From NCBI GenBank assembly GCA_902728285.1, contig CACVBU010000050.1, positions 2,266,060 to 2,330,059 of the forward strand: a stretch of DNA of 64,000 nucleotides, written 5' to 3'. The DNA comes from Clytia hemisphaerica. Its lineage: Eukaryota; Cnidaria; Hydrozoa; Leptothecata; Clytiidae. This document shows, one piece after another, positions 8,376 through 58,935 of the stretch. Both the position numbers and the translations under genes were made by a program. The notes under the pieces were generated by a model, which was not told the origin of the DNA, made no database searches, and was given only the letters and a program-made list of their open reading frames with translations. How positions within the stretch are numbered: the stretch's first letter is position 1; each line of letters opens with the position of its first letter.

Positions 8376-9392
8376 TTATTGGTCTAAAAGATGAATTATA
8401 GCCTCATAAGTCAAAAAGGTCACTGCAGTGTGAGGTAATTGGCGTAATAAACTAGTGCCAAATCCACCATAAAGTCCAGCTCTTCCTTCCTCTCTAGCTA
8501 CCAGCTTCAAACTCTGGAAAAAGTTTTTATATTTCAATCCTCCATTTACATCCAATACATCTTGCCTTAGCCTAGTCCTTATAACTTCATGGGGATACAT
8601 TATGGTTGTGGCAAATATTTTTGAAACTGTAGCTGCATAAGTGAAATGTAGGGCTTGAAACTTCAACTTTTGTCCATCCATTTTCTTTGAAGAAATCATT
8701 CTTTTGAGCTCTTCATATAAAAGAAAGTAAATCACAGTTTCCAAGACACCCACATAAGATGCTGTAATTCCTCGAAAGAAACATTTCATTCCATGTTTTC
8801 GATAACCCCGCACAATGATTTGTCGGACTGTTTTATTTTTACCACTCAATTGCAACTTTGTCTTAATGTACCATACTGGATTTGTAACTGTACCAGTGAA
8901 AATACCTGCAGACATTGCAGAGAGTGAATGGACAACATGTTGATGAGATTGTAAAGTTGAATTTTGATACAACTTGTGCTTGGCAGTAGCATAGCAAAAG
9001 AAGTATGCTGATTTTGCTGGAACGATTCCTATCAACCCTGGTGTCAGGCCTTTGTACATGGATCTAATTCCTTCATTCTGAACCATATGTCTCATGTATG
9101 AAAAAAGCACTTGGAAATATCCAAAGAATGGCTTTCTCTGTACTTGAATGGCAGGTCCCCCAGCAATAGCAGGAGCTGTTAAGTTTGCACTTGCACCAAC
9201 ATAACTAAAATTTAGTTTTGTTGACATTAACCGTGTTTGTACAACATCCAGAGGACAAGTAACACATTGGGCAACAGTAGATCCTATCCCACCTGCTAGA
9301 AGATGAACAAATGGCCCGAGATTGGGTCGATTGGAAGATGAACTAGCAACTTCTTTTGTTGATCTGCTTGGGTCCTGGTGCTGCTGCGACAT
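8376..9392 (-). CDS. mitochondrial carrier, SLC25A33/SLC25A36-like (pyrimidine nucleotide carrier)
   Basis: A 338-residue member of the SLC25 family of six-helix inner-membrane carriers. The three repeat signatures are PLDVVQTRL (residues 47-55), NPVWYIKTKL (171-180) and YPHEVIRTRLR (266-276). The Asn-Pro-x-Trp form in repeat 2 and PHEVIRTRLR in repeat 3 are typical of the SLC25A33/SLC25A36/Rim2 group, which exchanges pyrimidine nucleotides across the mitochondrial inner membrane. Repeat 1 has Gln where Lys or Arg is usual. The length fits the family (about 310-340), with a Ser-rich hydrophilic N-terminus. The whole gene is one exon, unlike most animal orthologues, which may mean a retrocopy or intron loss. 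The stop codon lies inside an AATAAA hexamer. Family assignment is firm; substrate is inferred. Confidence 0.9.
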   Translation of the reverse strand: MSQQHQDPSRSTKEVASSSSNRPNLGPFVHLLAGGIGSTVAQCVTCPLDVVQTRLMSTKLNFSYVGASANLTAPAIAGGPAIQVQRKPFFGYFQVLFSYMRHMVQNEGIRSMYKGLTPGLIGIVPAKSAYFFCYATAKHKLYQNSTLQSHQHVVHSLSAMSAGIFTGTVTNPVWYIKTKLQLSGKNKTVRQIIVRGYRKHGMKCFFRGITASYVGVLETVIYFLLYEELKRMISSKKMDGQKLKFQALHFTYAATVSKIFATTIMYPHEVIRTRLRQDVLDVNGGLKYKNFFQSLKLVAREEGRAGLYGGFGTSLLRQLPHTAVTFLTYEAIIHLLDQ

Positions 9393-15004: not shown

Positions 15005-15688
15005 AGAGAGTAGTCAAAATGGAATATGCTAGAAGGGTCCTATTTTTACACCCCTGAAAGTCTCTTTAAGGATTACAAAATTCACTCCCTTAAATTCGCT
15101 CTCTCGAAATTTCCGATCTCAACAAAGGGGTCGCGATTTTTTAAATTTAGACCAAAATCAAGTGAAAATCAACAAAAATTTTGGGGAACAGTCTCTCTTA
15201 GGGCCCCAAAAACATAAATTTGTTTCTCTCTCTAAGAGTTGGTTTTCGATTTTTGATATACCCGTCACCTCGCAAACCTTGATCGGCTGACAAGAAAGTT
15301 CAAATAAAACAAGTAAACTAGTCATAGCTTTCACTAAATGCCCCCACATAAAGATCGCTTTAATGCTTTAAAGATTAAACATTAAAAAATAATCAGGAAT
15401 AATTGATTGCTTTAATTATTGATTGATTGGTTGATTGAGGCGTTTGTTTGAAAAAAAAATTATATTCCATTATAAAAAAATACATACTTGAACAATTCAT
15501 GCAGCTTGATAACTTAATAAAATTTAAGGAAAAGCTGGAAAAGCCTCTCAAAAATATATTTAAAAAGTTATGGTATCATTATCTTACTGATTTTCACATT
15601 TCCTGTTTGTTTGTTTTTCTCCTAGTTTCTTTCTTATAACGATATATGTCATGATTATTATTCACTAAATAGACCTTTTCTAATAATG
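15005..15688. other. non-coding stretch
   Basis: AT-rich. Short frames on both strands have no recognisable features. Confidence 0.4.
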
Positions 15689-15716
15689 TTCTAGTTCTAG
15701 TTCTAGTTCTAGTTTT
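15689..15716 (-). repeat. 3'-terminal hexamer array of the LINE
   Basis: TCTAGT repeated about four times on the plus strand, about 390 bp past the last LINE codon. CR1-clade elements end in short tandem repeats instead of poly(A), so this is taken as the 3' terminus. Confidence 0.5.
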
Positions 15717-16107: not shown

Positions 16108-16575
16108 CTAGAATATTAAGCTATCGATAGAATTTTTGAGTTCTTTTTCAGTTTTCAAATTTGCTCTAATTGGTAATTTGTTCCATATTTTGATGGTAGA
16201 TGGAAAGAATGAGTTTGAATAGCATTTAATCCTGCCCAGAATGGGCTGATATTTCACATTTTTACAACGCTGTCTAGCTGGGTGAATGCTGCTGTCAACG
16301 AATTTGTTTCCTGACAAAATATCAAATAACATTTTCAATTTCGATTTGGATCTCCTTGTTTCCAGTGTTTCGAGTTTAAGTGATTTCCTTAGATCGTTTG
16401 GGCTGACTTCTGAACTCCATTCCCTACAGATCCAGCGGATAGATTTTCTCTGAATCATTTCAATTTTCTGGGTAAGGGATTGGTTTTCAGTGGGATCCCA
16501 TACAGTGTTGGCATATTCCACCGTTGGTCTGATAAAAGTTTTATAACACTTCAGACGTGTTTCTTTGTCTGCCAT
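16108..16575 (-). pseudogene. LINE reverse transcriptase C-terminal segment
   Basis: A 155-codon frame carrying the typical C-terminal region of CR1/jockey-like polyproteins: FIRPTVEYANTVWDP, IEMIQRKSIRWI and IKIWNKLP near the end. It is the same polyprotein as the upstream segments; its frame actually begins just past the second frameshift near 16695, so the ATG at 16575 is not the true start. Confidence 0.85.
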
Positions 16576-16664
16576 TGATAGGTTCCTTTGAAAGAATATT
16601 CGGGTGTTATTTGCTTTGGAAGTGGCAAGATCAATGTGATTCTTCCAAGAGAGATTATTCGAAA

Positions 16665-17261
16665 TTACGACACCGAGATATTTAGCTTTGTTAACAGTTT
16701 GAGCTGTTGACCATGGATTTCATAGGTTTTATCATGAATTTTTCGTTTGTTGGTGACTCTGAGGTTAAAACATTTGTCTGGGTGAAACTCCATGGACCAT
16801 TTGTTTTCCCATTTTACCAATTCGTCTAGGTCTTTTTGAAGCTTTTCGCAGTCTTCCTGTGTGTGTATTGAGCGGTAAAGATATGCGTCATCGGCAAACA
16901 GCGCAATTTTCGATTTTACTTCAAGTGGCATGTCATTTATATAGATTAAGAATAGCAGTGGACCGAGGACAGTTCCTTGGGGGACACCTGAAATGACGTT
17001 TGAAATTTTGGAGGATTTCCCACGAACAACAACACATTGGGTGCGATGAGATAGAAAGTCTGTAACCCAAGTTAGGACGTTGCCATGTACTCCATAATGT
17101 TTAAGTTTAATAATTAGTTTACGATGGCATACCTTATCGAAGGCTTTACTGAAATCAAGTAAAATACTGTCAACTTGTTCTTTGTTGTTGATAGCTCTAG
17201 CGAGGGTATCAATGGTTTGAAAGCAATTGGGTCTCGCACGATCTTTTCTTGCGAAAGCCAT
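16665..17261 (-). pseudogene. LINE reverse transcriptase catalytic segment
   Basis: A frame of about 198 codons with core RT motifs: LLDFSKAFDKV, SGVPQGTVLGPLLFLIYIND and FADDAYLY (the catalytic F/Y-x-DD box). It overlaps the end of the upstream 729-codon frame in another phase. The shift is best explained by one extra base in a short A run near 17220-17222 (a T run in the coding strand). At its 3' end the frame drifts out of the conserved sequence near 16695, and the third frame resumes it. Confidence 0.88.
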
Positions 17262-19398
17262 GTTGAGTATCTGTAAGACAGCTGTTCTCCTCGAGGTGGT
17301 TGATGATGTGGCTATGAACGATGTGTTCTAAAACTTTGCAGGTGACAGACGTCAAGCTAATCGGTCGATAATTTTCTGCTTTGGACCTATTTTTGTTTCC
17401 TCCTTTGAAGATTGGACTGACTACAGCATGTTTCCAATCAGTGGGTATTTTCCCTTGCTTTAATGATGCATTGAATAATAGGGTGAGACCGTCAGCAACT
17501 TGGTCAGCTGATTCCTTTAGAATACGGGCTCCGATTCCGTCAGGACCGCTAGCTTTAAAGGGATTCAATTCGTTAAGTAGTTTTACGACTCCGTTTTTGG
17601 TAACAATGATGTCATTGATCTTTTTTCCTTTAGGGCCTAATGGTGTTGGGGTTGTACCATCATCTTCTGTGAAGACACTTGTGAATTGGTTATTTAGAAT
17701 CTCTGCTAGTTCCTCCTCTTTGGTATGGATTTCGTTGTTTTCACCCAAGAGAGGTGATAAACCACAAATGTCTGTTCTTTTGGATTTCACAAATGAGAAG
17801 AACTTCTTGCTATTTTTCTTATCATTGCAAATGTTTTCTTTGATGTAGGTGTTGTATACGTTTTGGCAGGTCTTTCTTGCCAATTTTGCTGCCTCCTGGT
17901 ATCTTTTCCAGTCTCGATCAAGTTTAGTTCTTTTGTATACTCGGTATCTTCTTGACTTTTTTCGAACTGCCTTTTTGCATACTACGTTAAACCAGGGTTG
18001 ATTGAAACGCTGAGATGTGGTCTTTGTTGGTACATGTTTGTCCTGCGCATTCGAGATAATTTGCTTGAACGTTTCCCAACATTTATCGATGTCTGTTTCT
18101 GTAGTGTTTGTTGTGCAGAAGTTTTGTATACCTTCAGTCATATCCTTTTGAAGGCCTTCTATATTTGCCCGATGCCAAACATAGATCTTGCGTTGGATAG
18201 GTTTCGATTTTTGGGGATGGCAGAAAACATCAGCAATAACAGCTGTCTCATGGTCACCAAATCCTTCATACGGCTCACATTTGTTAGTAAGACCAGGTCG
18301 GTTCGTTAGAATTAGGTCAAGTATGGCTTTTTTCCGAGTTGTGAAGTCAACAAGCTGATTGAGATTTAGAGCATCGAAGGCTTCAAGGAAATCTTCGTTT
18401 AATTGTTTTGAGTATTGGCTTCTGACAATAGTGTTAGATTCCCAGTCTATGTCTGGAAGGTTGAAGTCTCCACAAATCCAGTGCGGGTTCAGTTTATACT
18501 TTTTCACAGTGTTGGAAATATCTTTAATTAACTGAATGTTGTAAGAAGCATCACTTGATGGGGGTCTGTAGCAGGCTGTGAGAATTACTGGCTTCTCATA
18601 GGATTCTATTTTAATTGATACAATTTCAGATTTTTGCTGCGGAAGTTCTTGAACTAGGAGGTTATCTTTGTGGATGACGATTTCTCCTCCTTTTCCATCT
18701 ATGCGATCCTTTCGAATGGCGAGGTAATGCTTTGGAAGGAATTGAGAGTTGCTAATGTTACAAGACAAGTGAGTTTCAGAGCCAATTAGAACGTCTATGT
18801 CGTTTTTATGTAAATAGTTTCCAAGCAGAAGTTTTTTGTTCCAGATACTTTGGAAATTGCACACAACGACACGTAGATGGTTGACTTTCTTTTTCTCGGG
18901 TGTGATATCGTTGGTAGAGGTTGAGCTGCAGGACGAGATCGAGGTATCGAATAGACTATAAGAGATGTCTGCTAAAGCACAACTTGGACAAAGCCATTCT
19001 AAACTCTCCTCTTGGATGTGGCATTGATAGATTTGATCATCCATGTTGGTACATTTAAGGTGAAACCACTGGTTACAGAGGTCACAAGCGATAGAAGCAC
19101 CAGAAGAAACTGCCTTTTGACATTCACCACAGGGATATTTCAACTTCTGTGATGGGCCAGGGTTGAGTTCGACAGTACCACTAATGATTAATAGCATCTG
19201 CTGTAATATGGCACTTGTTTTCGTCTTGCATGGGTGGTATCGATTTTCCTGATAAGTAATAGCAAAGGAAAACAGCGAGATTTCATTTTTAGAGAGAACT
19301 TTGCAGCAAAGCAATGAGTTTGCTTGGTTCAAAGGTATCTGACATTCAGTTAGTTGCCAGGATAACATAGCAATGAGCAGCAGTCGCGAGAGAATCAT
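17209..19398 (-). CDS. LINE polyprotein, N-terminal part: 2A-like motif, PHD finger, APE endonuclease, start of RT
   Basis: 729 codons. Residues 1-22 are hydrophobic and signal-peptide-like. Residues 74-82 (GTVELNPGP) resemble a 2A ribosome-skipping motif. A C4HC3 PHD finger follows, with C90, C93, C105, C108, H113, C116, C137 and C140. The APE-like endonuclease spans about 174-390 with N181, E208, GDFNLPDIDW (D311, N313), D361 and D382-H383, all the usual catalytic positions. The RT begins near 600, with NPFKASGPDGI and ENYRPISL. RT then leaves frame near residue 725. Endonuclease coding looks intact, so the copy may be young even though it is not functional as a whole. Confidence 0.88.
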   Translation of the reverse strand: MILSRLLLIAMLSWQLTECQIPLNQANSLLCCKVLSKNEISLFSFAITYQENRYHPCKTKTSAILQQMLLIISGTVELNPGPSQKLKYPCGECQKAVSSGASIACDLCNQWFHLKCTNMDDQIYQCHIQEESLEWLCPSCALADISYSLFDTSISSCSSTSTNDITPEKKKVNHLRVVVCNFQSIWNKKLLLGNYLHKNDIDVLIGSETHLSCNISNSQFLPKHYLAIRKDRIDGKGGEIVIHKDNLLVQELPQQKSEIVSIKIESYEKPVILTACYRPPSSDASYNIQLIKDISNTVKKYKLNPHWICGDFNLPDIDWESNTIVRSQYSKQLNEDFLEAFDALNLNQLVDFTTRKKAILDLILTNRPGLTNKCEPYEGFGDHETAVIADVFCHPQKSKPIQRKIYVWHRANIEGLQKDMTEGIQNFCTTNTTETDIDKCWETFKQIISNAQDKHVPTKTTSQRFNQPWFNVVCKKAVRKKSRRYRVYKRTKLDRDWKRYQEAAKLARKTCQNVYNTYIKENICNDKKNSKKFFSFVKSKRTDICGLSPLLGENNEIHTKEEELAEILNNQFTSVFTEDDGTTPTPLGPKGKKINDIIVTKNGVVKLLNELNPFKASGPDGIGARILKESADQVADGLTLLFNASLKQGKIPTDWKHAVVSPIFKGGNKNRSKAENYRPISLTSVTCKVLEHIVHSHIINHLEENSCLTDTQHGFRKKRSCETQLLSNH
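19153..19179 (-). other. 2A-like translational recoding motif
   Basis: Encodes GTVELNPGP at residues 74-82 of the LINE protein, preceded by LLIIS. The consensus is D-V/I-E-x-N-P-G-P with skipping between the last Gly and Pro; here Thr replaces the Asp. It separates the hydrophobic leader from the PHD finger, as in 2A-bearing APE-type LINEs known from other invertebrates. Confidence 0.75.
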
Positions 19399-21769
19399 TG
19401 TTGTAAAAGATTAGTTTATATACGATAGAATAAGATAGAGTAAGAGGTACCTGCTCAGCTGCACGTGGATCCAATCACACGCACAGCTGGTCCTTGGTTA
19501 TTTGCCGAGACCTCAGTAGTATTCTGCTTTTTCGTTTGTATTGGACACTTGGCCAGATTTCCTCGTCCAGTCTGTCAGTTCCAAACCAGGGCGTCTTGTA
19601 GTAGTGTATTTTATAACTTTTTTAGTTTCTTTTTCTTTTTAGTTCGCTGAAAAAGATGGCTCCACCAGGTTTCCCAAGGTTTTGCCTTATTCACTAATTC
19701 TTAATGGAGTGAATTTTTTTATCTGTGTCGCAGACATCTTAGATTGTAGACAAAATATATGGACATACGCAGTGAATAAATCCACAAGGTAACCAATCAG
19801 AAATAGCTTTTTTTTTTCATTGGCTGCTATATTTCAACATTTCTCTATTGCTACTTTGCCTAATAAACAAAAGTCAAGAGGATACTGCGTATAAAATTTA
19901 TCAAAAAGTTCTGCGTCATCTTAAGTTGGGTGAAATAGAAACTCACTTATCCTAGTTAAGGCCCGGGCTCCACTAGCGTACGCTGTGATTGCACTTCTCA
20001 AGTAAAATCTTCTATGTTGTTGGTCAAAAGAAAAGTAAAGGAATGCCATTGTGGTTCATTCAGACGTACAGTCGGGAAAAGTTAAAATGCGCCTAAATTT
20101 CTTTTCAAGTGCATAGTCCTTTTTCATGATGCAATCTTTTCTCCAAGCTGATCGCAGCGCAGACAATGAAGAGACGTGCCTTCAGGAAGCTAGACTTTTT
20201 GAGTTTATAGCTAGCAATATACTTTCCCTTTATGGTGTTTCTATATGACTGTCTGTGTACCTAGTCTCCTAGTCTAACCATCGTTAAATGCCTTCGGGAA
20301 GGTCTCTCCTAACTTAGAAAGCCAGAATTTGGAGCACCAAACCACTGGAGCGTAAGTTATTTAGGCTATCACAACTGCATGAAAAAGTTTAACGTACGCA
20401 TGTAAAGTTTAACGAGTAAAACAAACTTTTTTCAGGTTTTTGAAAAAGATTTACCACACTGAAAAGACGTAAAAACACTCTAAGTGAGGTAAATTATTTT
20501 GAAGACCAAAAGAAAAAGTCAACCACGTTTGGATTCAACTTTACATATGCGTACATTCATCTTTTTTGTACTTTGCCGGTTGTTTTACTAAGTTAAGATA
20601 AGAAGGACTTTCTCAAGTTACGACCATATATGTATTTAGAGCTCAAGAAGCCCTATAAACAGTAAAGGTAGTTATCAATAAAATGACAGACAAAAATAAA
20701 TTAGAGTTTGAACAAAAATATCAAATGTACATTTGAAAACTTAAGCAAATTTCTTTAAAGATTCTGGAAAAAGAATTGAAATCATTGCTGAAGTGAACTT
20801 CTGACTAAATTACAGTAGTTAGTATTCAGTTTCAAAGACAAGAAACAAAATTTGACATACAAAACACTTTTTCTAGTCAATGAATCAGCTCATCATCATC
20901 ATAACCAGTCTGCCATTTTGTTTGTTTTGATTTGCACAAGTAATATTGTAATTCGTGTTATATCATACACTGTTTTGATTTGCATTTATAACACTCGCTT
21001 CAGCTTTTCAAAGCTAAATCAAAACTAAAATTGTAATATGTAATAATGATAATACCATATAACGTAATATGAAAATATGCATACTACCGTCCCGGAAAAA
21101 TACCGAACATTTACGGAAGAGACTAACTACGGATATGCTTGCGCGACAACAACAACAACAACAAAACAATTCGCAAAATTTTGAGATTCCAGTCCAATAT
21201 CTATGCGTGAAACTATGAGAGCCTCCTCGTCGCTACGCTCCTGCGGGGGCAAAAACGATGTTGGAGATTAAAATTGGTGGATAAATTAAAGCCATTACAT
21301 GAATTGGGCTCTTTCAGAAAATGTCCGTACATCGGACTTGCTCTGTTTGGGGAAATCTATTTGAGAGTAATTTTGAATGTCTAGGGGTCAACTAATGTTT
21401 GTCCGCCGGGGGGGGAGGGGGGTTAGAGTTGCTATCTGAGGGGTTAAAAGTCACAATGTCCGGGGGATAATTTTCCAAAAAATGTTATCCTCCACTCCCC
21501 ATATTCAAATTTTTTTCTTAAAAAGCGTATTTCTCAAAAGGTTAGAAAATATGCAGCCTGTATAAAAATTTATAGTTTAAGTATAAACTTATTTCTTTTT
21601 TTATGATTTTTGTTGGCGAAATGTACTGACTCGGCAAAAATCATATTAATGAAATTTGGGAAATTGGGTCCACCATGGGTTCATCCATATAGTATATACA
21701 CGAAAAAAATTCTACATTTTGGACCACCTTGTGCGTAAAGAACAATTGAAATGACGTACCACTTTGCTA
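19399..21769. other. LINE 5' flank and non-coding stretch
   Basis: 19399-19650 may be LINE 5' UTR. The rest contains no recognised gene. A (CAA)n tract lies near 21148-21172, and a G-rich run (about 21401-21423) may be an end of another G-run MITE. Confidence 0.4.
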
Positions 21770-26085: not shown

Positions 26086-26164
26086 TTTCACCCTATTGAC
26101 TTTAATCTTGACCAAAATAATGAACCAGGACCTTCTTCAAGCAATGCCATTCTTCCTACACCTA

Positions 26165-26792
26165 CCGGGTGCGGCAGAAAAAACTTTGGACGTTTGGCGA
26201 GCCACTGAGGCCGAACAAAGTCTTGTTTAGACTCAAAACCATTTTTATTAGAAAGAGGATAGTCTAACTTAAATTTTGCGGTATAACTTTTTAAGTTTGG
26301 TCAAGTAGTTGTCAAGTTATAAGCTTTTGAAGTTAAAATTTACTTTTCGAAAAGTGTGAAAAACACGTAATAAAAGGGTATTAAATTAAGCATTTTTAAG
26401 CGTTTTCGATAAGAATTTTTTTCAAATATTTCTAAAAAAACTGACTATTTACTAAAAACTGACTATGTTGTAAACGAAAAACTGCTTTTAAAGTATTTTA
26501 ACAATTAATTATGTCGTAAAAGTCGTTAAATAAGTCAAATACTGAGCTATTTTTTCATTATTTGCATAAATTTAATACACCTTTTTTTACGTGTTTTTTA
26601 CACTTTTCGAAAAGTGAATTTTAACTTCAAAAGCTTATAACTTAACAACTACTTGACCAAACTTAAAAAGTTATACCGCAAAATTTAAGTTAGACTATCC
26701 TCTTTCTAATAAAAATGGTTTTGAGTCTAAACAAGACTTTGTTCGGCCTCAGTGGCTCGCCAAACGTCCAAAGTTTTTTCTGCCGCACCCGG
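26165..26792. mobile_element. foldback element with about 210-bp inverted arms and TA target duplication
   Basis: The two arms (26165-26385 and 26572-26792) start CCGGGTGCGGCAGAAAAAAC and are inverted copies with only a few mismatches. TA flanks both ends (26163-26164 and 26793-26794), and removing the element restores a continuous flank. The centre of about 185 bp is AT-rich and non-coding. Near identity of the arms suggests recent insertion. Confidence 0.9.
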
Positions 26793-26848
26793 TACTACCC
26801 CATCTGTTACCGACGATTCCAATTTTCCATCCTCCAGTACCGCAAGCA

Positions 26849-27994
26849 ATGCCGCTGTCCACGTTCTCCGAAAAACTTTCCCAAAAGCTGTCTCAAGAAA
26901 AGACTAAAGTGATCTACAAGCCATTGAAAAACAAGAGTGCTGAAAAGTTGAGAAAAGGTTATCTGAATAAACACAAACGATTAATTAGAACACGCTCTCA
27001 AACTGAACGCCGCGGTGTTCGCAAACTTTATCCAAAGAAACGCGCTGTTGGATTCAAGTTGATTGATGAAGAAGTTTTAATGAAAGCCTTTAATAATTTT
27101 ACTGTTTGCAAAAACTGCAAGGCTTCTTCCTCTATTGAGATTCAAGAAAGTGAAAATCTTCGCAGAGGCATGTGCGAAACATTGACATTGTTCTGTAAAA
27201 GCTGTTCGCACATATCCGAATTCAAAACCAGTCCACGCTCGTCAAATAAAATTCTTGCGTATGATGTGAACATCAGATCAGTGTATGCAGCTCAACAAAT
27301 TGGAAGAGCAGGCCTTTCAAAGTTTAACAACTTAATGGAACTTCCAGCCCCCGTAACATCAAAACCTTTCACACATATCCAAAACAATCTACTTGAAACC
27401 ATTTCACAGCGCACTTCCAAAGTTTTGAAGGATGCCGCGGATAATTTACTAACCAAAACATTAACCGAAAATCCGAAAAACATAACTGTATTAGACAATG
27501 GGGAGATCATAGCTGATGTGTCTGTCATCGTAGATGGAACGTGGCAGCGTAGGGGTCATTCATCAAAAATCGGGGTTGTTTTTGTCATCAGCGTCGAGAC
27601 CGGAGAAGTTCTGGACTATGAGGTCAAAAGTTTATTTTGTCATTCCTGTTCAAAACGACAGAGTTCTATGACAGAAAGTGATTTCCAAAAATGGTATGAA
27701 ACACATGCAAAGGAATGTGAAATTAATCACAAGGGAAGCTCTGATTTCATGGAGACCTCTGGCGCGAAGGAAATTTTTCTGCGGTCAATCGATAAGTATA
27801 ATCTAAAATACACTGTGTTTGTTGGTGATGGTGATAGCTCATGCTTTGGCTCTGTAAAGGAAGCATGTGAGGAAGTGTATGGTGATGGTTACAATTTAAA
27901 CAAGGAAGAATGTGTTGGACATGTCCAAAAAAGAATGGGCACTAGGTTGAGGACCTATAAAAAGAATATGCGGGGTCAAAAGCTTGCTGACTGA
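26849..27994 (+). CDS. Mutator-like transposase, main surviving frame
   Basis: 381 codons. A Lys/Arg-rich N-terminus (to about 70) is followed by a CxxC...CxxC zinc-binding region (VCKNCK near 90, FCKSCS near 116) and the catalytic-fold region with VIVDGTWQRRGHSSKIGVVF (about 229-248), FCHSCSK (about 264), VFVGDGDSSCFGSVK (about 324) and EECVGHVQKRMG (about 356). The DGTW and GDGD acidic residues are the expected first two catalytic positions of this DDE family. The third should lie beyond the stop. The stop at 27992-27994 is premature: conserved sequence (RLADKSIDKIQNFYG) follows in another frame. The ATG at 26849 may be internal. Confidence 0.8.
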   Translation: MPLSTFSEKLSQKLSQEKTKVIYKPLKNKSAEKLRKGYLNKHKRLIRTRSQTERRGVRKLYPKKRAVGFKLIDEEVLMKAFNNFTVCKNCKASSSIEIQESENLRRGMCETLTLFCKSCSHISEFKTSPRSSNKILAYDVNIRSVYAAQQIGRAGLSKFNNLMELPAPVTSKPFTHIQNNLLETISQRTSKVLKDAADNLLTKTLTENPKNITVLDNGEIIADVSVIVDGTWQRRGHSSKIGVVFVISVETGEVLDYEVKSLFCHSCSKRQSSMTESDFQKWYETHAKECEINHKGSSDFMETSGAKEIFLRSIDKYNLKYTVFVGDGDSSCFGSVKEACEEVYGDGYNLNKEECVGHVQKRMGTRLRTYKKNMRGQKLAD

Positions 27995-30172: not shown

Positions 30173-31514
30173 GGACCTACCTAATGATTAACATCAGATG
30201 AAAATAAGAAAAAAGTGACAATAATTGTAAAAAAATTCAGAATGGAAAAATAAAGCTTGTGTGTTGAATAATGTAAAATGGTAAAAAGGAATTTCCCCAA
30301 ATACGAAAATCACTTAAACCATTCAGGCCCAAAAAACCTTTTAAGCTGTTTTTGGCCCAAATTTGCCCAAAAAAATTTTCCTTAAAGATCTGGCTCCTTC
30401 ACATTTTGGGTATTGCCATTTTGCATCATTGTGCAAAAAATCAGAAAAAAATTATGAGTCAACATTGAGAAAAGCTATATTTTCTTATTTGGTTAAAGGG
30501 AATTTCCCCAAAATACGAAAATCCATCTTTTAAGGCGAATAAGAATTTTCCAGGAAAAACCACTTCAGCCATTCTTTAGAGAATCTTGCCCTCCATCTTT
30601 GTACAAAAATTCAGAAAAAAGTAGCGACAGGATTTTGCACAAAGTCCAAAAAACCCTATTTTTAGGCAGTTTTTGGCCCAAATTTGCCCAAATATATTTT
30701 TTTTCGAAAATCGGGCTCCGTCACATTTTAGGCATTGCCATTTTGCATCATTGTGCAAAAAATCAGAAAAAAATAATGAGTCAACTTTGAGAAAAGCTAT
30801 ATTTTCTTATTTGGTTAAAGGGAATTCCCCCAAAATACGAAAATCCGTTTTTAAGGCGAATAAGAATTTTCCAGGAAAAACCACTTTAGCCATTCTTTAG
30901 AGAATCTTGCCCTCCATCTTTGTACAAAAAATCAGAAAAAAGTAACGACAGGATTTTGCACAAAGTCCAAAAAACCCTATTTTTAGGCAGTTTTTGGCCC
31001 AAATTTGCCCAAATATATATTTTTTCGAAAATCGGGCTCCGACACATTTTAGGCATTGCCATTTTGCATCATTGTGCAAAAAATCAGAAAAAAATAACGA
31101 GTCAACATTGATAAAAGCTATATTTTCTTATTTGGTTAAAGGGAATTTCGCCAAAATACGAAAATCCGTTTTTTAAGGCGAATAAGAATTTTCCGGGAAA
31201 AACCAATTCAGCCATTCTTTAGAGAATCTTGCCCTCCATCTTTGTACAAAAAATCAGAAAAAAGTAATGACAGGATTTTGCACAAAGTCCAAAAAACCCT
31301 ATTTTTAGGTAGTTTTTGGCCCAAATTTGCCCAAATAAATTTTTTCTCAAAAATCGGGCTCCGTCACGTTCTGGGCATTGCCATTTTGCATCATTGTGCA
31401 AAAAATCAGAAAAAACTAATGAGCCAATCCTGAGAAAAGCTGGTAACAGACGGACGGACGAACGGACATGGGTTAATTTATAGAACCTCCACCGGGTTAC
31501 CCGGAGGTAGGTCC
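30173..31514. mobile_element. tandem-core element, 322-bp units with (GGAC)n tail
   Basis: About 3.6 copies of a 321-322 bp unit lie at 30285-31440, recognisable by CCATCTTTGTACAAAAA near 30593, 30914 and 31236. After the last unit comes a GACGGACGGACGAACGGAC microsatellite (about 31449) and a GC hairpin (CCGGGTTACCCGG, about 31490). A 10-bp inverted repeat, GGACCTACCT at 30173 and AGGTAGGTCC at 31505, flanks the whole. This layout recalls Helitron-associated pearl/HINE-type elements of marine invertebrates. It has no protein coding; open frames are by-products. Confidence 0.65.
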
Positions 31515-38163: not shown

Positions 38164-38911
38164 TAAGGGCTTTTGATGCTCAAGCTAAACCGGCGTTTGC
38201 GACGACGGGGACCGTCTAGTAGACTTCTATAAGAATATTTCCAGGGTGAGTTTGATACAAATATTGTGATTTATATTCTTGCAAAAAAACCTGTATTTCT
38301 TTTTTCTATTTATTTTATATTATTTATTTTCAGGCTAACATCATTCTCGACAAGGAAAAGAAAAAACCATCCAAACCGACCAAACCGAAAACAAAAAAAC
38401 AAAAGTTCATGGAGCTGCTCCGTGACGATGAAGTTGATCATGAGAAAACTGATTTTGATAAAACATGCACTTCACCACCAAAACGATACGCTCCAAATTT
38501 TTCTAATATTTCTAGGACGCACAAGACACAACATACAACATCTAATACACTAAAACCATCCACTTCAACCCAATCAAAACCCCCGTCAATCAAAAAGCCG
38601 AAAACGAGCAAAGAATCTCCTACATCGACCACCGAAAGCGAAGACTCTGATTCCACTGAATCTGAAATTGAATTTGAAGAGGAGCACGACTTTGGAGAGT
38701 TCAAGTCATTGAGCGACAGGTCGTTAACGCTGAACTTCACCCACTTATATGAAGAATTCTATCCAAAATTTCATTCTGGGCGATACAAAAAGAAACAGGT
38801 CTGGGACATGATACAGAAAAAACTTAAGTCGACAATAAAACCTGGAAATCCAGTACCCACTGCCGCCCAGTGCAAATACAAATGGCGTGCAATGAGTAAA
38901 GCATATAACAA
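38164..38911 (+). CDS. Myb/trihelix-like DNA-binding exon of a mobile-element-like gene
   Basis: An exon opens after TTATTTTCAG at 38334 and continues open to 38911, where a GTAAAA donor follows. An upstream segment ending near 38246 (GDRLVDFYKNIS, then GTGAGT) joins it in phase. After a Lys-rich stretch and a Ser/Thr/Glu-rich linker, residues near the end (LNFTHLYEEFYPKFHSGRYK, then KKQVWDMIQKKL and CKYKWRAMSKAY) form a three-helix Myb/trihelix/MADF-like domain. It lies just before the nuclease-like gene and on the same strand, but its splice phase does not match the next exon, so I do not join them. Confidence 0.55.
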
Positions 38912-39147
38912 GTAAAATATTTATTTATATTATTTCAACTACGATCCTGGATCCTACGGTCCTGGTATTTGTGACATTTTTGTTGAGGTTTACTCTTAGC
39001 TCCGTAGAGTGTGCAAAATTTGAGGTTTACAACTAAAATTTTGCTATGATTAGGCTTTTTTTGAGGTTTACACAAACTTGAGATATCCATTTTTGAAGTA
39101 GGAGCAAAATATGAGGTTGACATAGAAGATGAAGATTTTATTTTTAG
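38912..39147. other. intron or spacer
   Basis: Contains GAGGTTTAC-type repeats also seen near 45800-46900. Ends in an acceptor-like TTTTTAG. Confidence 0.4.
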
Positions 39148-53200: not shown

Positions 53201-56200
53201 CGGTTGCAAAAATCAGTTTTATCAACAATCGAATCATGCTTAATGGTGGGCATTGTTATCAAAAATGCTTTTGAGTGAAAAAACAAAGGAATATGAGGAA
53301 AAAGTCCAATGAAAATCTGCTAAAACGGCGATTTCCGGCATTTTCGGCCCGGAAAAAAATGTTCTCAAAATTCGGACTCGATCGTGTTTTGGGCATTGCT
53401 AATACGCATCTTTGCGCAAAAAGTCAGAAAAAACTAATGATAAAATCTCAATAAAATGCCGAAAAACGGTTTTTCCGGCATATCTCCGGCATTTTCGACC
53501 GGAAAAAAAATTTTCTCAAAAATCGGACTCAGCCATGTTTTGGGCATTGCTCTTTGTGCGAAAAATCGGAAAAAACTAGTGATGAAATCTCGAGAAAATG
53601 CCAAAAAGCAGGTTTTATATTTCCGAGATTTTCGGCCGGAAAATTTTTTTTTCGAAAATCGGGCTCCGTCACATTTTGGGCATCACTATTTTGCACCCTT
53701 TGTGCCAAAAATCAGAAAAAACTAATGAACCAATCTCGAGAAAAGCTGATAACAGACTAGCTTTTTAGACAATCCTTTTTTTATTTGTTTTGTATTTTTT
53801 ACAGATTTTTATTTTACCAAAACGAAGCACTTAAAACATTGTAACAAAAAAGTCGACAACATCTCGGGAAAGGTGTATTAAACGTCTTACTTTATTACTC
53901 GAGGTAGGATACGAAGCCTCGTCATCAATACGGTTTTAAATGATCACTGTATATCCCGTATCCCACCTCGAGACGATTGTACAACGGATTTATCCCGTTG
54001 AAGTCCCTTCGTTGCATGTTATCCAAAAGCAAAAAAACTCTCAGAACTCTCTAAGTAGATACTTACATCAAAGAGCTACAAAGTAAATCAAACTGTGAAA
54101 GTGACATTTTATAGCATCGCAAAGTCTTGCTGTAACCATATCAACTCAAGAAAAGTAAAAATCAAAATAACTTTTTCAAAGATTTTTTGTTTGTTGACTT
54201 TCTCAACCCCAACCATTTCTATTTCGATTTCAAGTCTTTTCAAAACAAAACATTCGAATCTTGATCAAAACATTCGAAAGCACATGATATGCAATGTCTT
54301 CTTTTTTTTCTCAATCGAACGCGAGGGAGACAGGATACGGTTTACTGTATATATCCCACCTCCACATGATGTCTTTTAATAACCAATGAAATCGCTAGAA
54401 TCTTACTGATGCGGGATAATCATATTTCTCCTCAGAAGAAAGGTGAAAACCCCCCTCCCCATTATAAAATTTCCGATGACTTTCTCTTGAAATAATGTGA
54501 AGACGTAAAAAATATGAAATAATCTTTACTTGAACAACAACACCATTCCAAGAGTAAAAAGCCTCTCTCACCTGTAGCGGGTTGAATCCTTTTGTGTAGT
54601 AGCCAATATTCGAAGCATCCATCACCACATCAAAAGGTCCATTCGAATCCAAGTAATTCTCTAACTTACCAAGTACATTATAAATGTCATTTTGAGTTGA
54701 CTTTTTAGTGCTTGAAAGTTCTCGAAAATCATCTTTACTCCCGCTTATCAAAGTATCATAAAATCCATAATGGTCAGCTTGCCGTTGAATGACTTCTCGT
54801 ATTTTCTTATTGCGTCTCTTTCGATCAACATCAGCAATTTTAGAGTTGGCTTTCAGAGCAATATTTGATTCAACGTAGGCCATCATGTTTCGTTTGAGAC
54901 GCACCATTCGTTTTTGTGAAATCGTATTCTTCTTAAAATGTGCATTACAACAAGGACATTTACGACTAGAAACATGAAGTAAAAATTTAACATTACAGAA
55001 CTTGGTTGTTCAACTGAAATTTACAGAAAACATTGATAACTCGAAAAGGTTTTTTATTATTAAGGTATATGAAGACATTTTACACGAAAAAATCAGTGAT
55101 GAAAATCAGCAAGTACTTTACTATTACCTATCGTTGGCAACATCAACTTCAGTCAATCTCCATTTTATTTTAGTAGTGCTGCAAAAACAACAATTCACAA
55201 AAATAGTATTAAATTATAAAACATCAAATAAACTATTCTTTTTCATGAACCATTAAAGTGGGATTAAAATGAGGAGGGGTAACCACATTTCCATCATGGG
55301 AATCCTTTCCTTTCCTCTGCTATTCTTTTCCATGCATCGAAACAAAAACATAGAAAAAGACTGAGTGTTATCAATCTGATTAATCCAATGATGAAGGGTT
55401 TCTTCTCTATCGAAACAATACTGTACATCATCTGCATTTTGAATTATCAATCTAGAAACTTTCAAATACATCTCTGAAAAATCTGCTACTACTCTTCAAA
55501 ACAATCAAAATATTTTTCAAAATAAGCTTAAGAAAATGACAGTGGTCCGTTAACTAAAATTCTATTCCCAAGGAGTGGCGTTCCAAGTTTCGTACAACTT
55601 TACAGCTAAAATGCGATTGAATTCTTGAAATAACGCTTACCTTTTAAACCACTTTTCTAATGATTCGGCATCTGCTTGTCCGATTGGTTCACAGCCGAAT
55701 TTTTCTAAAGTCTTTAAAGAGGAATTCACCATTTTCTCCAAATGTTGTTCATTAAGATCTGTTCTGATTTCTCCACAAGATCTGATTAAATCTACAAATG
55801 CGTTGTGTATGAATTTGCTACGCGAGCTTTGAAGAAGCAAATCGAAATAACGTTCTGCTTTCTTATATCTTTCCAACTTCAAGCATAGTGTAATTAAAGG
55901 TATAAACGTTCGGCCGTGATAGATAATATCGTTCTCTTTCATATGTTCGAAATAGGATTTTACTTTCTCGAAATCTTCAAGATTAGAATAATGACGCATC
56001 ATGATTGTGTATGACGCCTCATTCGCTTCTCTTCTACTTAACATATGTTTGAACAATTTTTCTAAGTTTGTATCTTCTTTTCGTTTGGAATATTGGAACA
56101 GAATACCACTCAAATCATTTCGCCATTTCTTAATGTCTTTCTCAATAGGATCTTGTCCGTCTTGTAATAAACCTAACAAATCGTTCGCGTATCTCATTAA

Positions 56201-56344
56201 GTGTCCACTTTCAAGTTTGTCTAAACCACCGATACTGCGTGATTTGAACTGGATTTGTTGCTGGCGTGTAAAGGTATCATTTTTATTGAATTTATTAAAG
56301 TGGTAACCGCCTCTTGATAACATCCTTATTAAATATCTTTGCAT
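50206..56344 (-). CDS. PRORP: PRORP: protein-only mitochondrial RNase P catalytic subunit, five exons
   Basis: Exons on the minus strand: 56344-55641, 54965-54530, 52092-51923, 51027-50835 and 50301-50206 (1599 nt, 532 residues). Every junction is GT/AG and keeps the frame. PRORP cuts the 5' leader from mitochondrial tRNA precursors, in animals with TRMT10C and HSD17B10. Order of parts: Arg-rich start suited to mitochondrial import; PPR helices (about 75-230); zinc CPCC (C238, C241); NYN/PIN nuclease with metal-binding PFDVVMDASN (D351), LDDYYILY (D440, D441) and GFVSRDLLRDH (D461); C-terminal zinc residues in GWHIPK (H518) and NWICVQ (C528). The four catalytic Asp are kept, and D441 to D461 has the spacing seen in human PRORP. 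Introns of 0.5-2.4 kb hold transposons. Human PRORP is 583 residues. Confidence 0.92.
50439..50643. mobile_element. MITE in PRORP intron 4 (205 bp)
   Basis: The left end GAATACACCTTTCCGACCTT pairs imperfectly with the right end GCGGTCTAAAAGGTGTATTC. An inner pair, CCACCCTAAA near 50500 and TTTAGGGTGG near 50573, also folds. Confidence 0.65.
52115..52660. repeat. dispersed repeat in PRORP intron 2 carrying a MITE
   Basis: AGCAAGGTTTACCGCCTGAGACG, the next about 70 bp, and the segment resuming at GAGACGGAGAAGCCTC (52488) align with 57774-57900. The two halves are separated here by the MITE at 52211-52483, absent in the other copy. A weaker relative of the right part (GAAGGTGAAA, CCCTCC, AAATTTCCGAT) is at 54430-54480. 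Confidence 0.6.
52211..52483. mobile_element. MITE with 46-bp termini and five GGAATTCC repeats
   Basis: GGGCTTTTCCAGAAAAAAAT through AGGAGGTCCA is inverted at the right end, over about 46 bp with two or three differences. The body carries about five units of the form GGAATTCCAxxxGGGTA or GGGAGTA. The empty site is seen at 57840-57870. Confidence 0.85.
53320..53760. repeat. tandem repeat in PRORP intron 2, related to the 30-31 kb element
   Basis: Three diverged units of about 150 bp share TTTTGGGCATT, TTTGTGCAAAAAATCAGAAA-like and AAAACTAATGA motifs with the array at 30285-31440. The right end (CTCGAGAAAAGCTGATAACAGAC) matches the end of that array before its microsatellite, which is lost here. 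AGACCTACCTGATAGTGAAAG near 53030 matches its left flank. Confidence 0.65.
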
Positions 56345-56427
56345 TATTTATTTTTATGTTTTTCTGAAATCAAACAAGAAAAATATATACTGAGTCTCAA
56401 AACTGTCGAACGTGCTAACCGCACTGG

Positions 56428-57359
56428 CTCAACTTCAGTATCTTTGAAATCATTCGTAGGCCCAATTGTAAACTTAATGGCTTAAGAAAAATTATAGCAT
56501 TTTGGGTTTTAGCCTCGTTTTAAATGGCGAAAAACTCGTCCCCAGGCCCCAAAAATTAAAATTTTGAAAAAATGAAAAAAACACCCCTAGGGATTTGCCC
56601 AAGGATCAAGTGTGCAAAATTTCAGCCCAACCGGACCATTTTTGAAGTCTCCAGCTTGCCCCAAAGTTTTAGCCTCGTTTTGGCGAAAAACCCGTCCCCA
56701 GGCCCCAAAAATTAAAATTAAAAAAAAATGAAAAAAACACCCCCAGGGATTTGCCCAAGGATCAAGTGTGCAAAATTTCAGCCAAATCGGACCATTTTTG
56801 AAGTCTCCAGCCTGCCCCAAAGTTTTAGCCTCGTTTTAGCGAAAAACTCGCCCCCAGGCCCCAAAAATTTAAATTTTGAAAAAATGAAAAAAACACCCCC
56901 AGGGATTTGCCCAAGGATCAAGTGTGCAAAATTTCAGCCCGATCGGACCATTTTTGAAGTCTCCAGCCTGCCCCAAAGTTTTAGCCTCGTTTTGGCGAAA
57001 AACTCGTCCCCAGGCCCCAAAAATTAAAATTTTAAAAAAATGAAAAAAACACCCCCAGGGATTTGCCCAAGGATCAAGTGTGCAAAATTTCAGCCAAATG
57101 GGACCATTTTTGAAGTCTCCAGCCTGCCCCAAAGTTTTAGCCTCGTTTTAGTGAAAAACTCGCCCCCAGGCCCCAAAAATTTAAATTTTGAAAAAATGAA
57201 AAAAACACCCCCAGGGATTTGCCCAAGGATCAAGTGTGCAAAATTTCAGCCCAATCGTACCATTTTTGAAGTTTCCAGCCTGCCCCAAAGTTTTGGTGAC
57301 AGACACACACACACACAGACACACAGACATTCTCAGATTCTAGCTCAACTGAAGTTGAG
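56428..57359. mobile_element. tandem-core element, 156-bp units with (CA)n tail
   Basis: Five units (about 56507, 56666, 56822, 56978 and 57134), nearly identical and 156 bp apart, end in a CACACACACACAGACACACAGACA tract (about 57303). The 12-mers CTCAACTTCAGT (56428) and ACTGAAGTTGAG (57348) form an inverted pair around the whole. Because 156 is divisible by 3, long open frames run through it on both strands; they are not genes. The element lies immediately upstream of PRORP. Confidence 0.75.
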
Positions 57360-58935
57360 AACAGAGAAAGATACCGTAAATTTTAGAATGACGAATAACA
57401 TTCTAAGGTTTGATCAAGTACTTTAAGAGTTTATAGTTCAGTTATTCCTATAGTATATCAATAACTTTAAAATTTCCCATGACGGGACTTGCACAGGACA
57501 ATATCAATTCAATAAGTCCATCCTTAAACCAGCTCCCTTTAGTTAAAAATTAATGAGCATCTTGGTTTAGTAACGAAAAGGGGGTAGGACACGAAATGAA
57601 ATAATAGCCTTGCAAAATAATTTCATTAAAATACTATCCAAAAATAATTTAACAATAGTCAAATGGAAATGATTAACAGTAGAAAAAAGTTTAGCTACTT
57701 AAAAATTTGACACATCCGTTGATCCTGATCTAAATGGTTTGGGAACATTTTTTAAATCATCCGAATTTTAGTAAAGCAAGGTTTCTCGCCTGAGACGGAT
57801 TTACATTGCAAATTAGTATATGTATTTTTGAAATCTTGGTGTATTACGCAGTGTTTTTAGACGGAAAAGCCTCTTAATATACTTCATTGAGACATCAAGT
57901 CAACTAAAACGTGTACAAAATGCAACATTTTCGATGACACAATAAAGAATCGAACTTCAAGAAAGTCTGGTATTCGTGTGAGGAGCTAAGATCTAATTTA
58001 TGTGTAAAGGACAAAAAAGTCCATATAAGCCTCACTACTGCTATGCACAGGTTAAAAAGTAGCAGTATAAATTTAATTATCTATATACTTGATAAAGAAT
58101 ATTTAAAAATAAATTAAACTTTAGTAAAAAAACTACGGTCAATTAATTTGAAAAATATCATGGACTAGAACTATGTATATACATATTATAAATAAATTAA
58201 CTTGTTAATATAATATAAACTTTGTAAATTAACTTTCAGAAAGCTGCATTTAAAAGTGAAAACATCTATTTTGACCAACATTATTTAGAATAATTATTCA
58301 ACGAGAAAAACTAAGATTTGTGACAAGACAGAAAATCATTAGGATTAGTCTACACAATAGACAGCTCCAGGCTTTTAGGCCTTACTCTTGGTATATAGGC
58401 ACTGCTATAGGCGGTCACTAGTAGCCACCACCGGGAATTGCTTTTTAATAGGTTTAAACATAATAGACAACTTTTCATAAAAGATTTTTATCAATTTCGT
58501 TTCATTAAATCCTCAGTGCGCATGCGATTTATCAGTAGAATTTCAATATTCAAAACAAGAGCAGTGCTCATATCCCGAATGTAATTTATAGTGCTCAAGT
58601 ATGCCAAATTTTCACTTCTGTATTACAGTTCAATTATCGGTCAAACATTATTTCTAGGTTTAGTGTTCCCGGGGACCTCGAGTGTTCGATTAAATTTAGA
58701 AAACCTCGAACTTAAAAACGATTATAAATAAATATTAAACAATTATATGCTAGTTAAAAACTACTGATTCGATACAGCACTTAATTTTTTGAAAACAGAA
58801 ATATTACATTTTAAGGATTTTCCTGATCTTAAACATCTGATCTATCAAAAAGAAATTTCTACACCATTAAACTTAGTTTCTCAACATTCAGTTGCAAAGA
58901 TTTGTCTCGGATCATCTTCGAGTGAAAAGCACAGA
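57360..58935. other. non-coding stretch with one dispersed repeat copy
   Basis: 57768-57900 is the empty-site copy of the repeat at 52115-52660. The rest is AT-rich with nothing recognised. Confidence 0.45.

What the first reader, a model, noticed from the sequence alone, without database searches (positions are those of the whole stretch)
19150..19400. 2A-like ribosome-skipping motif with an altered Asp in a CR1-like LINE
The LINE protein carries GTVELNPGP at residues 74-82, between a signal-peptide-like leader and a PHD finger. Known 2A peptides need D-V/I-E-x-N-P-G-P; the Asp is Thr here. 2A motifs at this place are known from APE-type LINEs of several invertebrates. If it works, it would release a 81-residue hydrophobic leader from the rest of the protein; the Thr may mean partial or lost skipping.
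Basis: partly seen in the sequence, partly recalled or inferred. Interest (0 to 1): 0.7.

Follow-up and report, generated by a model that had tools for sequence, protein, structure and literature searches.

The report
LINE clade with Asp-less 2A motif
A family of jumping genes carries a peptide that probably makes the ribosome drop one protein and start the next, but with the usual aspartate replaced by threonine, serine, asparagine or glutamine, which suggests the rules for this trick are looser than thought.

Summary
GTVELNPGP is residues 74-82 of a 729-aa minus-strand ORF (window 19153-19179), between a signal-like leader and a PHD finger of an APE-type LINE. The window copy is dead (two frame breaks), but T is not decay: L009, 99.8% identical over 1220 nt, is open for 1101 aa and has T. 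In the own genome (417 Mb) the core pattern occurs 417 times, reversed control 0: 349 Asp, 1 Ala, 67 others, of which 63 belong to this clade by position (S21, Q19, T18, N4, L1). Of 61 fetched clade loci with the core, 0 have Asp. Core p6-p19 is the most conserved stretch of the aligned region (rank 1 of 427), pN/pS 0.15 against 0.62 in the leader. Leaderless relatives begin with Met where the 2A proline lies, and one subfamily's leader+2A was exchanged near that junction. So it is very probably a working StopGo with relaxed p12. A natural viral p12=T is 88.5% active (Li 2026); Ser and Gln are not among the variants named in the sections I read. Nothing was translated here.

The parts
19399..19726 (-). 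5' untranslated part of the LINE (approximate 5' limit)
   Evidence: similarity of window copy L010 to L009/L011 begins about 511 nt upstream of the 2A stretch
17209..19398 (-). main ORF of this copy (leader, 2A, PHD, endonuclease, start of RT), 729 aa
19342..19398 (-). signal-peptide-like N-terminus, residues 1-19 (MILSRLLLIAMLSWQLTEC)
   Evidence: hydropathy: in L009 (same residues) best 11-residue mean 2.4, reached by 0 of 363 windows downstream; the other 7 subfamily representatives 1.84-2.56, reached by 0 of 363 in six and 16 of 363 in E. No SignalP run
19153..19194 (-). 2A/StopGo core p6-p19, LLIISG-TVELNPGP, residues 69-82
19174..19176 (-). p12 codon ACT (Thr75), Asp in canonical 2A
19153..19158 (-). 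predicted skipped bond Gly81 / Pro82
   Evidence: position of NPG/P; skipping itself inferred
18979..19131 (-). PHD finger, residues 90-140
   Evidence: Pfam PF00628 E 3.6e-6
18250..18582 (-). APE-type endonuclease, residues 273-383
   Evidence: Pfam PF14529 E 1.4e-13
17224..17379 (-). start of reverse transcriptase, residues 674-725
   Evidence: Pfam PF00078, 27.1 bits, under its cut-off of 29.6 alone
16758..17207 (-). rest of reverse transcriptase in another frame
   Evidence: Pfam PF00078 E 2e-21
16108..16719 (-). C-terminal part in a third frame
15688..15714 (-). 3' tail of (CTAGAA)-type repeats
   Evidence: read

Best explanation
It is a StopGo (2A) site in which p12, normally Asp, has been free to change among Thr, Ser, Asn and Gln across a whole clade of APE-type LINEs. 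As the ribosome passes codon 81, the Leu-rich nascent chain and [T/S/N/Q]-[V/I]-E-x-N-P-G lock in the exit tunnel, the Gly81-Pro82 bond is usually not made, the 81-residue signal-bearing leader is released, and the same ribosome goes on to make a separate PHD-endonuclease-RT protein starting at Pro82. Shown here: conservation, the clade-wide p12 set, open copies, absence of Asp in the fetched clade loci, module exchange, and leaderless relatives starting at the same point. Inferred: that the bond is really skipped, its efficiency, and that the leader enters the ER.
For: (1) In an alignment of 8 subfamily representatives p6-p19 is the top 14-column window of 427. pN/pS is 0.149 without p12 (0.100 without p12 and p15) against 0.621 leader, 0.398 PHD and 0.450 after; pS of the core is 0.76, so the protein is conserved, not the DNA. 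1 of 100,000 random sets of 12 columns is as conserved. (2) 13 of 13 leader-bearing clade copies with an open frame of 950 aa or more keep the core, p12 S6, Q4, T2, N1 (frames, p12); the 8 leader-bearing copies with a damaged core have frames of 349 aa or less. (3) Copy pairs over 99% identical exist in T, S, Q and N types: recent spread. (4) The hexapeptides LLIISG, LLILSG, LLFLSG and LLVLSG resemble the LLLLSG-like class of Li 2026. (5) In 11 leaderless rows the ORF starts with Met 6-10 residues before the first PHD Cys; the 2A Pro lies 6-9 before it in 10 of 11 2A rows (L027 lacks that Cys). (6) L027 (subfamily D) matches L017 (B) at 88.5% over leader..2A but 58.7% and 49.3% after; in 13 of 15 D-B copy pairs the match ends -4 to +33 nt from the Pro codon, in two at +98. 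(7) Li 2026: natural p12=T 88.5%, p12=N over 95%.
Against: No translation was done. D12A abolishes StopGo in F2A, D12N was only modestly active in a foreign context (Li 2026), and the Leu-rich class goes with p12=D in viruses. p12 itself is unconstrained by pN/pS (1.09, few sites), and 3 of 59 gap-free leader columns are also all S/T/N/Q. Ser and Gln are not among the variants named in the sections of Li 2026 that I read. Signal sequences can go with inhibited 2A in vivo (de Felipe 2010). The constraint could have another cause.
Confidence: 0.72

Rival explanations
1. Tuned, partial StopGo: the non-Asp p12 keeps part of the product fused, so that signal-bearing full-length protein goes to the ER while free PHD-EN-RT stays in cytoplasm or nucleus (dual targeting, as for sea urchin NLR 2A).
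For: Hydrophobic N-terminus in the 8 subfamily representatives; Roulston 2016 shows such dual targeting; p12=T is the least active rare variant in Li 2026, 88.5%; some signal-led chains lower 2A efficiency in vivo.
Against: p12=N is over 95% active and canonical Asp sites can also be partial; no gain to a LINE from a secreted EN-RT is known to me.
Confidence: 0.3
2. StopGo is lost in the clade and NPGP survives for another role, for example as a turn or a translation pause between leader and PHD.
For: Asp absent in 61 of 61 fetched clade loci with the core; D12A abolishes F2A activity.
Against: The upstream Leu-rich hexapeptide and E/N/P/G/P are kept together at pN/pS 0.10; the PHD-EN ORF starts at the same point in leaderless relatives; T and N are active in viral contexts.
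Confidence: 0.17
3. Thr in the window is a decay mutation of an ordinary Asp 2A.
For: The window copy has frame breaks; Asp is the rule elsewhere in this genome, 349 of 417.
Against: The near-identical open copy L009 has T; T is in 17 of 61 fetched clade loci over several subfamilies, Asp in none.
Confidence: 0.01

Closest known systems
2A sequences in APE-type non-LTR retrotransposons (Odon 2013; not held, known only from its title in a reference list and from citing sentences)
   Same: 2A-like motif in an APE-endonuclease LINE
   Different: Here Asp is replaced by T/S/N/Q in a whole clade; whether Odon lists such forms could not be checked
Rare p12 variants of viral StopGo (Li 2026, PMC12846837; abstract, sections 6, 9, 10, 14, the reference list and some passages read)
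   Same: T (88.5%) and N (over 95%) at p12 are active; Leu-rich SG upstream class
   Different: Viral examples; S and Q not among the variants named in what I read; supplements not seen
Sea urchin NLR 2A signal sequences (Roulston 2016, PMC4981915; abstract/introduction, bioinformatics, recoding assay and discussion sections read)
   Same: N-terminal, signal-like, with a 2A
   Different: There the 2A is itself the signal and fits D(V/I)ExNPGP; here the signal-like stretch and the 2A core are about 50 residues apart
Type C rotavirus segment 6 2A (Luke 2008, PMC2885027, main text read)
   Same: natural 2A with lower separation (about 89 and 82%), giving both forms
   Different: RNA virus, internal site

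Membership tests
StopGo / 2A | core D(V/I)ExNPGP or widened (D/G/C/N)(V/I)ExNPGP | tested here: not met
   window has TVELNPGP; T is outside the widened core but is a tested functional rare variant; N copies L014-L016 and L019 meet the widened core
StopGo / 2A | upstream hexapeptide of a known class | tested here: met
   LLIISG resembles the LLLLSG-like class by eye; FIMO not run
StopGo / 2A | Gly-Pro bond skipped in translation | not testable with these tools
   needs in-vitro translation
APE-type non-LTR retrotransposon | APE-like endonuclease and reverse transcriptase | tested here: met
   PF14529 and PF00078
APE-type non-LTR retrotransposon | multiple dispersed copies | tested here: met
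   151 matches of the N-terminal 171 aa, weaker PHD-only matches included
CR1 clade | RT phylogeny within CR1 | not tested
   no reference LINE set held; the trees used PHD-endonuclease of own-genome copies only
2A dual-targeting signal sequence | signal peptide activity | tested here: inconclusive
   hydropathy only
2A dual-targeting signal sequence | two products in two compartments | not testable with these tools
   needs expression with microsomes or cells

The most novel reading that the evidence does not exclude
A LINE clade has rewritten the 2A rule: p12 Ser and Gln, besides Thr and Asn, are efficient StopGo residues in a Leu-rich context. The signal-leader+2A cassette is a swappable 5' module joined and lost at the skipped bond, its p12 residue setting how much endonuclease-RT stays tied to an ER-targeted leader.
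Probability: 0.35. Interest if true: 0.72.

Novelty: new variant of a known kind. Interest (0 to 1): 0.55.

Why it matters
It gives about ten natural subfamilies in one host, with Asp-bearing 2As beside them, to test which p12 residues let the ribosome skip a bond. That bears on motif searches (which ask for D, or D/G/C/N), on 2A design, and on why LINEs keep a detachable signal-bearing leader. The leaderless relatives make the role of the junction directly testable.

Tried and rejected
Decay of an Asp site: rejected by open T copies. Chance motif: rejected. Viral contigs: the search for related loci with the RT part found nothing. Pattern scans gave 8 (Ser TCN or Thr ACN), 0 (Gln) and 2 (Asp) stretches, chance-like because the Asp form is not the commonest; those loci were not examined. 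Text search for six non-Asp octapeptides (SVELNPGP, TVELNPGP, QIETNPGP, SVEVNPGP, TVEENPGP, SVEENPGP): 0 papers in the held library. This is weak evidence, as Odon 2013, Rao 2025, Sharma 2012 and two Kjaer & Belsham papers are not held. Host identification was not tried beyond Pfam on window ORFs.

Limits. Tree rows were chosen by me: 12 rows and 22 (21 different), out of the 90 loci L009-L098. pN/pS used 8 representatives (28 pairs, not independent, synonymous sites near saturation). Subfamily letters are mine, assigned by eye from motif and leader. L070 has a second in-frame Met upstream, so its leaderless state is less sure. L086 has a 998-aa frame but its match to subfamily B begins inside the PHD region, so it was not counted as leader-bearing.

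Full report
What is there. The minus-strand ORF 17209-19398 codes for 729 residues with GTVELNPGP at 74-82 (window 19153-19179) and p12 codon ACT. Pfam finds a PHD finger at 90-140, an APE-type endonuclease at 273-383 and a reverse transcriptase that runs on in another frame; a third frame carries the C-terminal part. The 3' end is a short (CTAGAA)-type tail near 15688-15714, and similarity to other copies begins near 19726. So it is a probably full-length but dead LINE copy of about 4.0 kb.

Chance. A composition estimate gives about 2e-5 [VI]ExNPGP per ORF of this make-up and 0.004 per six-frame window. In the whole own genome (G000, 417,433,876 bases, 951 contigs) the DNA pattern for G-x-[V/I/M]-E-x-N-P-G-P occurs 417 times and the reversed pattern 0 times.

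Census of p12. Of the 417: 349 GAY, that is Asp; 67 with a first base other than G (S21, Q19, T18, N7, Y1, L1); 1 Ala among G/A/V codons. These add up to 417, leaving 0 for Glu. Comparing by eye the 67 places with the matches, 63 lie in or beside a match of the window's N-terminal 171 residues (S21, Q19, T18, N4, L1). Four (C460 N, C562 Y, C791 N, C827 N) do not. One search lists only 100 of the 349 Asp places. None of those 100 coincides with a listed match, by eye; the other 249 are not listed and were not checked one by one.

Copies. One search gave 151 matches (428 candidates, 150 scored, so lower bounds). I hold 90 loci from them (L009-L098), chosen by me to favour matches that reach the 2A. 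63 of the 90 carry [VI]ExNPGP: S20, T17, Q17, N4, D2, and one each of L, G and K in short frames; the G case lacks the p12 codon altogether. The two Asp rows (L079, L080) are a distant family. Hence 0 of 61 clade loci with the core have Asp. Of the other 27, 8 are leader-bearing copies with a damaged core (L023, L046, L048, L060, L067, L068, L077, L078), their frames 349 aa or less and p12 where readable T, S or Q. The remaining 19 are leaderless, distant or cut. Leader-bearing copies with open frames (stop to stop) of 950 aa or more are 13, and all 13 keep the core: S6, Q4, T2, N1; one of them (L040) has a small gap in its PHD.

T or D. In the window's subfamily T (ACT) is in L009-L013 and L024, and N (AAT) in L014-L016 and L019. 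L009 is 99.84% identical to the window copy over 1220 nt and open over 1101 aa. Other subfamilies have S (TCG, TCA), T (ACA) or Q (CAA). On the PHD-endonuclease trees the states are mixed, so p12 changed several times within S/T/N/Q. The root state is unsure because the only Asp row is on a long branch.

Constraint. Across 8 subfamily representatives p6-p19 ranks first of 427 windows of 14 columns. Mean pairwise identity is 0.878 without p12 and p15, against 0.312 for the leader, 0.504 for linker+PHD and 0.475 after. pN/pS is 0.149 without p12 (0.100 without p12 and p15), against 0.621, 0.398 and 0.450. pS in the core is 0.76, so codons vary freely. p12 has pN/pS 1.09 on few sites. An unconstrained codon at this G+C would be S/T/N/Q with probability 0.24, yet 8 of 8 representatives are; but 3 of 59 gap-free leader columns are too.

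The junction is a module boundary. Relatives without leader (L070, L081-L085, L087, L088, L090-L092) start their PHD-endonuclease ORF with Met 6-10 residues before the first PHD Cys. The 2A Pro lies 6-9 residues before it in 10 of 11 2A-bearing rows; the eleventh, L027, lacks that Cys. Three leaderless rows (L070, L087, L088) fall in one fully supported group (100/100) with the clade's ten 2A rows. Within it L087 and L088 join L027 at 91/98 and L070 joins A/B/C/E/F at 97/99; several inner forks are below the tool's star. L087 shares its 5' UTR with subfamily H (90-92%) up to about 30 nt before its ATG, and L070 shares 5' UTR with C and F (88%); L087 and L098 are two copies of one form (97.7%). 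So L070 and L087 are not merely 5'-truncated. L070 has a second in-frame Met upstream; L088 showed only short matches upstream. The more distant leaderless rows may simply never have had the leader. L027 (subfamily D) has B's leader and 2A (88.5% with L017) but a different PHD-endonuclease (58.7%, 49.3%). Over five D copies against three B copies the match ends -4 to +33 nt from the Pro codon in 13 of 15 pairs and at +98 in two; it includes 5' UTR for L025, L026 and L027, while L032 and L063 match only from inside the leader.

How it likely works. In the F2A structure D12 hydrogen-bonds G3636 of 28S rRNA and L7 packs beside it (Li 2026 section 6). Thr, Ser, Asn and Gln can each offer a side-chain oxygen, so a partial replacement is plausible; this is inference, and active V and G variants show it is not the whole rule. 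Li 2026 measured 88.5% for a natural viral p12=T and over 95% for N, notes that D12N was only modestly active in a foreign context, and names neither S nor Q among its variants. The sequence around their T example was not seen. I therefore think the bond is skipped in most passages and the PHD-EN-RT protein begins at Pro82. The leader's first 19 residues look like a signal peptide by hydropathy, so a fraction left fused could go to the ER, as in Roulston 2016; this is open. de Felipe 2010 (abstract and discussion read) warns that some signal-led chains inhibit 2A in vivo.

Known or new. 2A in APE-type LINEs is known (Odon 2013; title only; Roulston 2016 also says so). An Asp-less clade with Ser or Gln at p12 I did not find in the sections read of Li 2026, nor by a text search of six octapeptides. 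Odon 2013 and Rao 2025 could not be read, so the novelty of Ser and Gln is provisional.

One search was added to sort the 27 loci without the core; it changed wording and counts, not odds.

Noticed in passing
own genome, 349 places: Canonical Asp 2A cores are very common in this genome; three read (L099, L100, L101) include a LINE-like ORF without PHD (L100) and another kind of protein (L099, L101).
   Followed up: partly
L099, reverse strand 1-1149; L101 looks alike: An Asp 2A (LLLSGDIELNPGP) sits just before a Herpes_teg_N domain (E 2.7e-10) followed by a repetitive tail; it may belong to a DNA transposon (recalled guess: Helitron-like). Two searches for its copies did not complete.
   Followed up: partly
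5' UTR of L050, L056, L087 and others: Tandem subrepeats of about 85 nt, shared between LINE subfamilies.
   Followed up: no
window 26163-26794 and 26657-27994: Mutator-like transposase ORF (PF20700) overlapping a 215-nt inverted repeat pair, 98% complementary.
   Followed up: no
window 8376-9392 and 54395-56347, minus: Mitochondrial carrier ORF, and ORFs with PPR and weak (below cut-off) protein-only RNase P matches.
   Followed up: no
window 38256-38915: Myb/SANT-like DNA-binding ORF.
   Followed up: no
window 60953-61575: 48-nt tandem units open on both strands.
   Followed up: no
window 56527-57450 and 30349-31438: 156-nt and about 321-nt tandem repeats.
   Followed up: no
L081 and L084 upstream of PHD ORF: Two distant leaderless PHD-LINEs have a separate upstream ORF (280 and 206 aa), possibly an ORF1; none of 60 aa or more was seen upstream of L070, L082 or L088 within the stretch held.
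   Followed up: no
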